NCBI GenBank assembly: GCA_900469965.1
Contig: UBZP01000006.1
Coordinates: 62,001-126,000, forward strand
DNA length: 64,000 nt
From: Hyphomicrobiales bacterium
Lineage (GTDB): Bacteria > Pseudomonadota > Alphaproteobacteria > Rhizobiales > Rhizobiaceae
Reading direction: 5' to 3'
The notes under the pieces were generated by a model. It had not been told where the DNA came from. It saw only the letters and a list, made by a program, of their open reading frames with translations, and searched no databases. This document shows positions 1,015 through 37,664 of the stretch, piece after piece; positions within the stretch are counted from its first letter, which is position 1; the number at the start of each line of letters is the position of its first letter. The translations under genes and the position numbers were made by a program.

Positions 1015-2091
1015 TCAGGCCGCCGCCGGGCCGGCGATCGCCCTGCCGTCCGGTGCGAACGCCATCAGGTGGCGCGTGTCGACATAGACGGTGATCGCGG
1101 CGTCCGGCTCGATGTCGTGGATGCCGGGCGCGAGCATGACCCAGCGCGTATCGGCGAACTCGACATGGACGAAGCTTTCGGATCCGGCGATCTCCGAGAT
1201 CGCCGTGCGGACCGTCACCGGGGCGGCGGACGCCGATTGCGGGCTCAGCGCCAGGTGATGCGGCTGGAACGCAACCGTGCAGGGGCCGTCCGGAATGCCG
1301 TGCAGATGGGCCGGGACCGACAGGACGCGCTCGCCTTCCAGCACGAAGTGCCCGTTCGCCTTGGTCAGCGCGAAGGTGTTCAGCGGCGGATCGGCGAAGG
1401 TCTCCGCCGTGATCAGGTCGACGGGGCGGCGATAGACGTCGATGGTGGGGGCGAACTGGGTGATGCGCCCCTCCGACAGCGTCGCGGTATTGCCGCCGAG
1501 CAACAGCGCCTCGGACGGCTCGGTCGTCGCGTAGACGAAGATCGCGCCGGAGGCGGCGAAGATCTTCGGCAGTTCCTCGCGCAACTCCTCGCGCAGCTTG
1601 TAGTCGAGGTTCGCCAGCGGCTCGTCGAGGAGGACGAGGCTGGCATTCTTGACGATGGCGCGCGCCAGTGCCGTGCGCTGCTGCTGGCCGCCGGACAGGT
1701 TCAGCGGCGTGCGGTCGAGATAGGGCGTGAGCTTGAGGAGGTCGGCGGCCTTGCGCACCTCGCGGTCGATCGTCGCCTGGTCGGCGCCCTTGATGCGCAT
1801 CGGCGAGGCGATGTTCTCGTAGACCGTCATCGCCGGATAGTTGATGAACTGCTGGTAGACCATGGCGACGCTGCGGTCCTGCACGCGCAGGCCGGTGACG
1901 TCCTTGCCGTCGAACCAGACCGAGCCGAAGGTCGGCTTGTCGAGGCCGGCCATCAGCCGCATCAGCGAGGTCTTGCCGGATAGCGTCGGGCCGAGCAGCA
2001 CGTTCAGCGACCCGCGCTCGAGCACGAGGTTGGTCGGGTGGATATGCGTCTCCCCTCCCACAACCTTCGCGGTGTCTTTCAGTTCAAGCAT
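1015..2091 (-). CDS. glpS: Glycerol ABC transporter ATP-binding protein GlpS
   Basis: This 358-aa MalK-type ATPase would pair with GlpT to drive glycerol import across the inner membrane. Walker A is GPTLSGKT (34-41), which is unusual after the first proline; the signature LSGGQ is intact (132-136) and Walker B is LVLLDEP (152-158). At the H-loop the usual histidine is replaced: the stretch reads VYATTEP, with Thr190 in the histidine position. A TOBE-like regulatory region makes up the C-terminal third. GGAG lies 6 nt before the ATG. It follows glpD by 39 nt and precedes glpT by 10 nt, so co-transcription is expected. Confidence 0.9.
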   Translation of the reverse strand: MLELKDTAKVVGGETHIHPTNLVLERGSLNVLLGPTLSGKTSLMRLMAGLDKPTFGSVWFDGKDVTGLRVQDRSVAMVYQQFINYPAMTVYENIASPMRIKGADQATIDREVRKAADLLKLTPYLDRTPLNLSGGQQQRTALARAIVKNASLVLLDEPLANLDYKLREELREELPKIFAASGAIFVYATTEPSEALLLGGNTATLSEGRITQFAPTIDVYRRPVDLITAETFADPPLNTFALTKANGHFVLEGERVLSVPAHLHGIPDGPCTVAFQPHHLALSPQSASAAPVTVRTAISEIAGSESFVHVEFADTRWVMLAPGIHDIEPDAAITVYVDTRHLMAFAPDGRAIAGPAAA

Positions 2092-2130
2092 TCATGTCTC
2101 CAATGCTCCTCCCAGCCATTGGAAGCCCCG

Positions 2131-3648
2131 TCAGTTCGGGGGTCGCAACGCCTTCGTCATGTAGTCTTCAAGTGCGTCCGCCTCGGCGGCCGTCAGGTGC
2201 AGCCCGCGCTTGGTGCGGCGCCACAGCACGTCCTCGGCATGGTGTGCCCATTCCTCCGCCATCAGCCAGCGGACCTCGACTTCGTAGAGATCGCTGCCGA
2301 AATGGCGGCCCATGTCTTCGATCGTCCTCGCCTGGCCCAGAAGCTGCGATGCCCGCGTGCCGTAGAGACGGACCAGCCGGCGTGCGTGGGCGGGCGCGAG
2401 AAAGGGATAGCGCTTCGCCAGCCGGGCGACCTCCGCGTCGAATTCGCCGACGCCGAAGTCGCCGCCCGGCAGGCGCGATCCGGCCGTCCACTTGCGCCCC
2501 TTTTCGCCGATCGCTTCGCCGATCTTCTCCAGCGCCGATTCCGCCAGCCGGCGGTATGTCGTGAGCTTGCCGCCGAAGACGTTGAGCAACGGCGCCTGGT
2601 GGCTGTTGCCGTCCGTCTTCAGGACATAGTCGCGGGTCGCTTCCTGCGCCTTGCTGGCGCCGTCGTCGAACAGCGGGCGGACGCCGGAATAGGTCCAGAC
2701 GATGTCGTCGCGTTTGACCGGCTCGACGAAATACTCGCTCGCCGAGCGGCAGAGATAGTCGATTTCCTCGTCGCTGATCCTAGCATCGCGCGGATCGCCC
2801 TCATAGTCGCGGTCCGTCGTGCCGATCAGGGTGAAATCGTCCTGATAGGGAATGGCGAAGATGATGCGGCCGTCGGGGTTCTGGAAGAAATAGGCGCGCG
2901 GGTCGGAGAACTTCTTGCGCACGACGATGTGGCTGCCCTGCACGAGGCGGACATTGTGCACGTCGTTCTGGCCGAAGGCGCCGGCAAGCACCTTGTCGAC
3001 CCAGGGGCCGCTGGCATTGACCAGCATGCGCGCCTTGACGACGTCGCGCTTGCCGGAGGCGACGTTCTCGGTCTCGACGTCCCAATGGGCGTTCTCGCGG
3101 CGGGCGGAGACGACGCGGGTGCCGACGCGGATGTCGGCGCCGCGGTCGGCCGCGTCGCGCGCGTTGAGCACGACGAGGCGGGCATCGTCGACCCAGCCGT
3201 CGGAATATTCGAAGGCCTTGTCGAACAGTTTCTTCAGCGGCTTGCCGGACGGGTCGCTGCGCATGTCGAGGGTGCGCGTCGCCGGCAGAAGCTTGCGGCC
3301 GCCGATGTGGTCATAGAGGAAGAGGCCGAGGCGGATCAGCCAGGCGGGGCGGATGCCGGCCTTGTGGAAGGGCAGTACGAAGCGCATCGGCCAGATCACG
3401 TGCGGCGCCATGGCCCACAGGATCTCGCGCTCCATCAGCGCCTCGCGCACCAGCCGGAACTCATAGTGCTCGAGGTAGCGCAGGCCGCCGTGAATGAGCT
3501 TGGTGGAGGCGGACGAGGTGCCGGAGGCGAAGTCCTTCATCTCGGCCAGGACGACGGAATAGCCGCGGCCGGCCGCGTCACGGGCGATGCCGCATCCGTT
3601 GATGCCGCCGCCGATTACGAAAATGTCCCTGACCGCGTCGTCCGTCAC
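2131..3648 (-). CDS. glpD: Glycerol-3-phosphate dehydrogenase (FAD-dependent)
   Basis: GlpD oxidises glycerol 3-phosphate to dihydroxyacetone phosphate at the inner membrane and passes electrons to the quinone pool. The N-terminus carries the FAD Rossmann motif GGGINGCG, followed by the family stretches SSASTKLIHGG and LRYLEHYEF; the DAO fold fills the middle and a C-terminal GlpD domain closes the protein. I place the start at the GTG at 3648 (505 aa) because AAGGGG lies 5 nt upstream and the fold begins at once. An in-frame ATG at 3687 would add 13 residues. It lies between glpR and glpS, as expected for glycerol catabolism feeding from the adjacent importer. Confidence 0.93.
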   Translation of the reverse strand: MTDDAVRDIFVIGGGINGCGIARDAAGRGYSVVLAEMKDFASGTSSASTKLIHGGLRYLEHYEFRLVREALMEREILWAMAPHVIWPMRFVLPFHKAGIRPAWLIRLGLFLYDHIGGRKLLPATRTLDMRSDPSGKPLKKLFDKAFEYSDGWVDDARLVVLNARDAADRGADIRVGTRVVSARRENAHWDVETENVASGKRDVVKARMLVNASGPWVDKVLAGAFGQNDVHNVRLVQGSHIVVRKKFSDPRAYFFQNPDGRIIFAIPYQDDFTLIGTTDRDYEGDPRDARISDEEIDYLCRSASEYFVEPVKRDDIVWTYSGVRPLFDDGASKAQEATRDYVLKTDGNSHQAPLLNVFGGKLTTYRRLAESALEKIGEAIGEKGRKWTAGSRLPGGDFGVGEFDAEVARLAKRYPFLAPAHARRLVRLYGTRASQLLGQARTIEDMGRHFGSDLYEVEVRWLMAEEWAHHAEDVLWRRTKRGLHLTAAEADALEDYMTKALRPPN

Positions 3649-36291: not shown

Positions 36292-36774
36292 ATGAGCGTC
36301 GCCTTCGTCAAGGAAGAGAGCGCGGAAACCGCGTCCGAAACCCTTCTGCCCGACCGCCCGATCTCGCCGCACCCGAACTTCGTCACCGAAGCCGGGCTGA
36401 AGGCGCTCGACGTTCAATTGCAGGACGCGCGCACCGCCTTCGAGGCGGCGAACGCCATCGAGGACGTCAACGAGCGGCGCCGGCAGGCGGCCGGCCCGTT
36501 GCGGGACCTGCGCTATCTTCGCGAGCGGGTGCGCACGGCCCAGCTGATCGCCCCTCCAAGCTCGAACGAGACCGTCGCCTTCGGCAGCACGGTCACCTTC
36601 GTCCGCGACAGCGGGCGCGAACAGACCTATCGCATCGTCGGCGAGGACGAGGCCGATCCGAAGGCCGGATCGATCTCCCATGTCTCCCCGGTGGCCCGCA
36701 GCCTCCTCGGCAAGCGCGTCGGCGACGTCGCCACCGTCGGTGGGCAGGAGCTCGAGGTCGTTGCCATCGGCTGA
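36292..36774 (+). CDS. GreA/GreB-family transcription elongation factor-like protein
   Basis: A 160-aa Gre-like protein with a 28-residue N-terminal extension, a helical hairpin (about 32-85) and a C-terminal FKBP-like domain (about 95-160, with FGSTVTFV and SPVARSLLGKRVGD). The hairpin tip keeps two acids in the DxxE arrangement of GreA (Asp58, Glu61), so RNA cleavage stimulation is possible. It is not the housekeeping GreA by sequence (short arms, divergent tip); it is a paralogue or Rnk/Gfh-like variant. Confidence 0.72.
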   Translation: MSVAFVKEESAETASETLLPDRPISPHPNFVTEAGLKALDVQLQDARTAFEAANAIEDVNERRRQAAGPLRDLRYLRERVRTAQLIAPPSSNETVAFGSTVTFVRDSGREQTYRIVGEDEADPKAGSISHVSPVARSLLGKRVGDVATVGGQELEVVAIG

Positions 36775-36905
36775 GCGGGATAGGGGGCGATGAAGTGAGG
36801 TGCGTTGAGACTGCTGCCGTGAAGTCAGCCATGTCACGAGTATGCCTTAACGGCCCGGATTGGGCATCACGCGGCGGCCAAACGTATCACTGACGGCGGT
36901 ACTGT

Positions 36906-37470
36906 CTAAGAAGCCAGTCCAAGGTTTTTATTGACGACCTTGGAAGGGCGCACTCGGACATTGACAATTGCCAAGGTCTGGCGACTTCCGGGGGGGGGCT
37001 GCAAGAAGCCTGTCAGTCGTTACGTTGAGACTGGTTACGAGACCATCGTCCTCTAACAAGCAATGGAATAGGTCGTCTCCGAGAAGCCCTTGCTCCTCTA
37101 GCTTTTGCGTGTCGGAAAGTGTGGGAACACGCAGTGCGTCCAACAGGGTCTTTACTCGATTGTCAATGTCGCCGCTTGTTGCGATAATTGATCCCGGTAC
37201 TTCCGGCCTCATCACCAGAATGTCGAGTTCTGCCCTCAGAAAGGCCCCGGTGCTAACGACGGCAGCAAATGATCGACCGCCGCGATCGCACCGAGCACTC
37301 AAATCGTTTGGGTTGCTTCCGTCGAGCCACGCCCTGTGCTCGTTCAACGGTATGTGATTCCAGAGATCTCGGAGTTGTGGTTCTAGCGATTTGCGAATCT
37401 CATGAATGGGCGCCAGACCTAACTGTTGTTTAGGTCTCAGTTCGCCCTGATAGTAGAGGCGAAATCTCAC
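36906..37470 (-). pseudogene. RusA-like family gene, frameshifted at a C9 tract (or phase-variable)
   Basis: Read as is, the frame runs from the GTG at 37470 (GAGG 6 nt upstream) to the stop at 36928, 180 aa. The core resembles RusA Holliday-junction resolvases: DIDN (101-104), Lys107, Asp111 and LEDD (139-142), like the acidic cluster and lysine of RusA. At 36990-36998 a run of nine G on the plus strand (C on the coding strand) follows TDRLL. With eight, the frame continues to a stop at 36906 with a C-terminus containing VRVRPSKV and NLGLAS. GC is near 47-50%, far below neighbours. No integrase or partner gene is seen. Confidence 0.6.
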
Positions 37471-37587
37471 CTGCAACCTCTTGCTTGAATGGTATGCCTA
37501 CTAGTTGGATTGCAATGTATCCGTCCCCGGAGCTCTTCCGAGGGGCGGGGCCACTGCTCCACAGGTTCAATATGGGCCGGCCTTAGA

Positions 37588-37664
37588 TGGTGATCCCGCC
37601 GCGATTCGAACGCGGGACCCCCAGATTAGGAATCTGGTGCTCTATCCTGCTGAGCTACGGGACC
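37588..37664 (-). tRNA. tRNA-Arg(CCT)
   Basis: A 77-nt cloverleaf on the minus strand. The acceptor stem GGTCCCG pairs with CGGGATC (one G-U), CCA is encoded, the D-arm carries AGCTCAG, the anticodon loop TTCCTAA has CCT flanked by 5-bp stems (CCAGA/TCTGG), and the T-loop is GTTCGAATC. It lies downstream of the amidohydrolase gene and its 3' end faces the low-GC RusA-like gene. Confidence 0.95.

What the first reader, a model, noticed from the sequence alone, without database searches (positions are those of the whole stretch)
36906..37470. RusA-like gene with a C9 tract that may act as a frame switch
With nine C the protein ends in an unrelated tail. With eight C the frame runs on through VRVRPSKV and NLGLAS, which looks like a native beta-strand C-terminus for this type of protein. 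The tract is either a slippage-prone on/off switch, a true pseudogene mutation or a homopolymer sequencing error. A single gene of this kind with no phage context is unusual.
Basis: partly seen in the sequence, partly recalled or inferred. Interest (0 to 1): 0.7.

Follow-up and report, generated by a model that had tools for sequence, protein, structure and literature searches.

The report
Frame-broken solitary RusA-like gene
A stray gene for a probable DNA-junction-cutting enzyme, sitting beside a tRNA gene of a bacterium, has lost the end of its reading frame at a run of nine identical bases; this looks like ordinary decay of a passenger gene (or a sequencing slip) rather than an evolved switch.

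Summary
A minus-strand ORF (GTG 37470, stop 36928-36930, 180 aa) holds one C9 tract (36990-36998). The predicted fold of an intact relative has a confident last strand; in the present form that tail is disordered. The tract lies in a variable loop and is not conserved. Of 36 members found, 6 are frame-broken; in the four others checked the gene has no run of six or more. A second gene of this genome is frame-broken at or beside another G9. Slippage decay, or a consensus error, fits better than an evolved switch; only reads can decide. The gene forms a 780-bp islet directly 3' of tRNA-Arg(CCT), absent at that site in two sister species. One relative sits in an insert that splits tRNA-Leu(UAA) and carries a phage-like replacement tRNA; two viral contigs hold the gene beside terminase. 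Probably a phage-derived passenger. RusA-superfamily membership rests on profile and catalytic residues, weakly on fold; activity is untested.

The parts
36807..37586 (.). 780-bp islet inserted directly 3' of tRNA-Arg(CCT); 54.9% G+C against 67.0% for the window
   Evidence: Empty site in same-genus genomes G004 and G006; composition. The left end is uncertain by a few bases because TTGA is shared at the junction.
36928..37470 (-). Present RusA-like ORF, 180 aa, start GTG
   Evidence: family profile match residues 1-162
36990..36998 (-). C9 tract (G9 on the plus strand) where the family frame is lost
36906..36989 (-). Family C-terminal strand in the other frame (GSRQTLAIVNVRVRPSKVVNKNLGLAS, stop 36906-36908)
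   Evidence: profile positions 172-194 of 195, 7.2 bits; random control
37150..37173 (-). Catalytic-type motif GDIDNRVK (residues 100-107); aligns with D70, D72, N73, K76 of E. coli RusA
37471..37482 (-). Likely ribosome-binding site AAGAGG and 6-base spacer before the GTG
   Evidence: Read directly
37588..37664 (-). tRNA-Arg(CCT), intact, same strand as and upstream of the gene
   Evidence: ARAGORN, Rfam
36292..36774 (+). GreA/GreB C-terminal domain gene flanking the islet
   Evidence: Pfam PF01272, E 2.7e-22

Best explanation
The gene is a horizontally acquired, probably phage-derived passenger encoding a RusA-superfamily nuclease of a divergent, uncatalogued branch. It entered as part of an element at the tRNA-Arg(CCT) site, of which only a 780-bp one-gene islet remains. 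The ORF then lost its frame by a length change in a C tract within a variable loop, so the present product keeps the catalytic residues but lacks the last beta strand and probably folds poorly. Shown: the islet, the empty sites, the family match on the two sides of the tract in different frames, the missing strand in the model. Inferred: that the change is a fixed slippage mutation, that the protein is inactive, that an integrase brought it in.
For: Family profile: upstream piece 157.6 bits over positions 1-161, downstream piece positions 172-194 in another frame, control. AlphaFold2: intact relative L011 mean pLDDT 86.7 with a C-terminal strand 168-179; present window form 78.6, residues 167-180 under 50 and the N-terminal strand no longer formed. 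Of 36 members found, 29 intact, 6 broken (window, L016, L017, L018, G352, G672), 1 undetermined because it lies on two contigs (G1174). Empty sites at the tRNA in G004 and G006. A second gene of this genome, RHE_PE00001 (DUF1612), lies in two frames around another G9. No match in the 6 same-genus genomes searched and rare beyond: 4 of 394 genomes in the family, 10 of 385 in the class, 3 of 398 in the phylum, 4 of 327 in the order, overlapping samples, each counting this genome.
Against: No reads, so a consensus error or a mixed population is not excluded; the second broken gene would also fit an assembly problem. No other lesion was seen in the gene, which a long-dead gene would be expected to show. 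No integrase lies in the islet and no repeat of the tRNA end was found there. Two of the other broken relatives (L016, L017) are from metagenome-assembled genomes and may be errors.
Confidence: 0.55

Rival explanations
1. Consensus error: the real tract has another length and the gene is intact.
For: No other lesion seen in the gene; a second gene is broken at or beside another G9 in the same assembly; contig C5 ends in an artefactual C and G run, which looks like a short-read assembly artefact (inference).
Against: If it is a short-read assembly, consensus errors in nine-base runs are uncommon (recalled). The sequencing platform is unknown to me, and I did not check the other genes of the window for breaks.
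Confidence: 0.25
2. Phase-variable on/off switch by slipped-strand mispairing at C9.
For: The tract is long enough to slip, is the only long run in the gene, and sits where the family frame is lost.
Against: No comparable tract in the 28 intact relatives examined: the longest run anywhere in their genes is 8 (T8 in L020, elsewhere in the gene); L013 has C5 and C6 at the same loop but is in frame. Only four internal tracts of nine or more in the genome. The tract is near the 3' end.
Confidence: 0.12
3. Leaky +1 ribosomal frameshifting on the run of CCC codons makes a share of full-length protein.
For: CCC-C is a known +1-prone sequence at proline tRNAs (PMC4519876, passages seen); the family frame after the tract is the +1 frame.
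Against: The 29 intact relatives read through this region in one frame, so it is not a conserved recoding site; no stimulating signal was sought.
Confidence: 0.08

Closest known systems
RusA Holliday-junction resolvase (E. coli K-12 DLP12 b0550; Pfam PF05866)
   Same: D-x-D-N-x-x-K and a later DD align with D70, D72, N73, K76 and D90/D91. Fold search of L011: three 2h8c (RusA) chains have the highest probabilities of the 50 rows shown, 0.85-0.90.
   Different: 181-224 aa in the 28 intact relatives against 120; below the Pfam gathering score (14.6 of 22.8 bits for the window protein; relatives best E 0.028); no more than weak matches to PHROGs, NCBIfam or PADLOC. Fold match weak: E 0.02-0.04, TM 0.51-0.52 by target but 0.34 by query, rmsd 7-9; IspF chains rank alongside by E-value.
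Prophage relics and islands at tRNA genes
   Same: One-gene islet exactly at a tRNA 3' end, absent at that site in G004 and G006.
   Different: No integrase and no repeat of the tRNA end found at the window islet.
Phase-variable genes with homopolymer tracts
   Same: Frame lost at a mononucleotide tract.
   Different: Tract not conserved; no evidence of more than one length.
Rhizobium phage Pasto (MT708545; annotated with tRNA-Leu and a tyrosine integrase)
   Same: Its tRNA-Leu is 90.6% identical over 85 nt to the one carried by the insert of the relative in G019.
   Different: No phage record, so not this one either, matched the window protein or L011; no DNA match between the window islet and the Pasto stretch held.

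Membership tests
RusA superfamily | Catalytic D-x-D-N-x-x-K and a second acidic pair (that these are the active site is recalled) | tested here: met
   Profile-profile 90.6% probability, E 1.3e-6, residues in register. D102, D104, D112, D146 invariant in 28 of 28, K108 and D145 in at least 90%; L058, L061 and L064 vary in the motif. In the nine yardstick RusA sequences D72 is kept in 6 of 9.
RusA superfamily | RusA fold | tested here: inconclusive
   2h8c probability 0.85-0.90 but E 0.02-0.04 and TM 0.34 by query; present window form probability 0.12-0.23.
RusA superfamily | Pfam PF05866 gathering score | tested here: not met
   14.6 bits against 22.8 for the window protein; 15 of 28 relatives match at E up to 1, best 0.028, 13.3 bits for L011.
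RusA superfamily | Holliday-junction cleavage as a dimer | not testable with these tools
   Needs an assay
Phase-variable gene | Two or more tract lengths in one population | not testable with these tools
   No reads held
Phase-variable gene | Tract conserved in relatives | tested here: not met
Integrase-type tRNA island | Direct repeat of the tRNA 3' end at the far side | tested here: not met
   Best match 10 of 12 bases, or 12 of 16

The most novel reading that the evidence does not exclude
Solitary members of this RusA-like branch may be a homing-like selfish gene: a junction-cutting nuclease that inserts itself as a one-gene islet at hairpin-forming DNA (tRNA-Arg 3' end in the window, tRNA-Leu anticodon arm in G019, next to a terminator-like hairpin in G352) and then decays, explaining the rare, scattered and often frame-broken copies.
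Probability: 0.06. Interest if true: 0.75.

Novelty: new variant of a known kind. Interest (0 to 1): 0.33.

Why it matters
The frame break itself is ordinary. Of more use: a RusA-like branch not covered by the family libraries searched, found as one-gene islets in bacteria and in the packaging region of two uncultivated viral contigs; and an example of an insert that splits tRNA-Leu(UAA) while bringing a phage-type replacement tRNA.

Tried and rejected
Group I intron or other RNA in the window islet: Rfam finds only the tRNA and one match far below its cut-off. Att repeats of the tRNA end at the islet: none found. Defence gene: PADLOC gives one weak match (E 0.047) among 28 members. Relatives in phage records: none in 50,697 for the window protein or L011, and no DNA match of the islet. 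A DNA pattern spanning the tract, in viral contigs: 0; a viral scan with L011 alone: none confirmed. Empty-site comparison for G253 and G556 was not resolved. PDB sequence search: no RusA chain. The G9 on C41: no Pfam match in the two frames tested; the twelve-base tract on C12 was only looked at.

Full report
What is there. The minus strand holds an ORF from a GTG at 37470 (AAGAGG six bases before it) to a stop at 36928-36930, 180 aa; one search lists it as 182 aa from an upstream TTG. It contains one C9 tract, 36990-36998. The frame with VRVRPSKV and NLGLAS runs on to 36906-36908. The tract is the longest run in the gene, the next is 5. The assembly (5,342,299 bases, 51 contigs) has few such tracts: exactly nine at C29 (this one), C31 and C41, one of twelve at C12, a long C run and G run at the end of contig C5, and six of exactly eight.

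The family. The first profile, A1, was built from 7 of them, the second, A4, from 28. G1321 was found afterwards and reads as intact but is not in A4; G1174 lies on two contigs and is counted neither as intact nor as broken. Thus 29 intact, 6 broken (window, L016, L017, L018, G352, G672), 1 undetermined. In four of the five other broken genes no run of six or more lies in the gene; L018, the most degraded, was not checked. L016 and L017 are from metagenome-assembled genomes, so some breaks may be errors.

The frame. With a profile of the 28: the part before the tract scores 157.6 bits over positions 1-161; the present whole protein 160.5 bits, its match ending at residue 162; the 27 residues after the tract in the other frame 7.2 bits at positions 172-194 of 195; the third frame -2.8 bits; the present tail no match. 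A score of 7.2 is low on its own. For 5000 random stop-free 27-aa stretches of this window, 9 hits reached it and none of them began at position 165 or later. In alignment the nearest relatives end as the other frame does: L011 TLAIIQVQLKASKLTMSNISVVG, L012 TLAIIRVAIKASTVTMDNLDLLT. The last few residues vary, and some members end earlier (L047, L050). The tract falls in a loop whose length varies among relatives.

Structure. AlphaFold2 for L011 (15-row alignment) gives pLDDT 86.7, with strands 2-10 and 168-179. For the present window form (16 rows) it gives 78.6, residues 167-180 below 50 and the first strand not formed. So the lost segment is a structural strand in the model. Whether the present product folds or acts was not tested.

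What it is. Pfam gives only RusA, below its cut-off (14.6 against 22.8 bits; 15 of 28 relatives at E up to 1, best 0.028). Against a profile of nine sequences (E. coli K-12 RusA and eight phage matches to it, one in an unannotated record), the family aligns at 90.6% probability, E 1.3e-6, with the D-x-D-N-x-x-K motif and the later DD in register. Against E. coli RusA alone only 19 residues around the motif align, at 9.6% probability. That these residues are RusA's active site is recalled; 2h8c is titled RusA D70N in complex with DNA. Foldseek puts 2h8c chains at ranks 5, 8 and 15 with the highest probabilities of the 50 rows shown, but at E 0.02 to 0.04, TM 0.34 by query and 0.51-0.52 by target, and IspF chains rank alongside. 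Sequence search of the PDB finds no RusA. NCBIfam, PHROGs and PADLOC give no match for the window protein where tried and only weak ones for the relatives (best E 0.0056, a PHROG without function, one member; two RusA PHROGs at E 0.085 and 0.25). I conclude: RusA superfamily, divergent branch, likely a junction nuclease; activity is inference.

The islet. Against same-genus G004 and G006 the window has an extra 780 bp, about 36807-37586, directly at the CCA end of tRNA-Arg(CCT). The eight lowest-G+C 780-bp windows, in 50-base steps, all overlap it (islet 0.549, window 0.670). The other four same-genus genomes differ at this place in other ways: G003, G005 and G001 have other sequence next to an identical tRNA, and G002 has a split tRNA. 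The host is near Shinella: 81.4% over 70% of a 10-kb stretch with Shinella sp. PSBB067; the genus name is inference.

Other islets. G352 has a 789-bp islet holding only the broken relative, in place of 80 bp in G108, beside a terminator-like hairpin read by eye. In G019 a 1.1-kb insert splits tRNA-Leu(UAA) at the anticodon, leaves a 10-bp direct repeat (GGACTTAAAA), and carries its own complete tRNA-Leu(UAA) 17 nt upstream of the relative, on the strand opposite to the split gene. All four matches of that query in G019 lie in this site, so the carried tRNA is probably the only one of its kind there. It is 90.6% identical over 85 nt to the tRNA-Leu of Rhizobium phage Pasto, which is annotated with a tyrosine integrase; the host-type tRNA of G161 is 72% identical to Pasto's. 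A nine-base word, TGTGCCAAA, stands upstream of the tRNA in the same orientation in both, at 71 nt in Pasto and 79 and 90 nt in G019; this is weak. So the G019 insert is most likely what remains of a Pasto-like integration, and by analogy the window islet a relic of an element at tRNA-Arg. Two more sites gave no resolved comparison. tRNA genes were seen near only the window and G019 copies among the family loci scanned, whose flanks are at most about 4 kb and in several cases cut by contig ends.

Phage link. In viral contig L055 the gene follows the terminase large subunit and precedes head genes; in L051 it lies between terminase and portal; L056 has an integrase nearby. Of ten neighbouring proteins given to that call, seven matched a PHROG and three did not; most viral loci were not annotated. 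No record among 50,697 phages matches the window protein or L011.

Switch, mutation or error. Against a switch: no conservation of the tract, few such tracts in the genome, late position. Against a gene-specific cause: the RHE_PE00001 gene on C31 matches its Agrobacterium relative in one frame up to base 983 and in another from 985, with an A6 run and the G9 (1001-1009) close by, so the break is at or beside the G9. Both breaks together fit slippage in passenger genes or an assembly fault. Papers: PMC4519876 (passages on CCC-C), PMC7717549 (passages on the tRNA-Arg(CCU) group I intron), PMC3711429 (abstract and outline); others only in listings. Searches for RusA with tRNA genes and homing gave 30 papers, of which the 20 listed are not about such elements by title, and RusA-like with selfish and endonuclease gave 0.

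Noticed in passing
L057 3589-4784 (G019): A 1.1-kb insert splits tRNA-Leu(UAA) at the anticodon with a 10-bp direct repeat and carries its own phage-like tRNA-Leu(UAA) and a RusA-like gene.
   Followed up: partly
L075 about 1820-2350, minus strand (G002): tRNA-Arg(CCT) carries a 220-bp insert just after the anticodon, the position of the alphaproteobacterial group I intron (PMC7717549, passages); with the two sides joined ARAGORN finds tRNA-Arg(CCT). A stray 29-nt piece of another tRNA-Arg 5' end lies upstream. Rfam at gathering score reports no intron.
   Followed up: partly
L085 558-1707 (G000:C31): RHE_PE00001 (DUF1612) gene lies in two frames around a second G9 tract.
   Followed up: partly
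L084 1001-1012 (G000:C12): A run of twelve G, the longest internal G tract found in the assembly.
   Followed up: no
G000:C5 end (L001): Contig ends in a long C run followed by a G run, probably an assembly artefact.
   Followed up: no
L065-L067 (G501, G621, G793): Three 0.9-Mb genomes of one genus keep an intact, very similar relative; in L065 it lies beside a gene that reads like gyrB (name recalled; neighbours of the other two not looked at), suggesting vertical retention.
   Followed up: no
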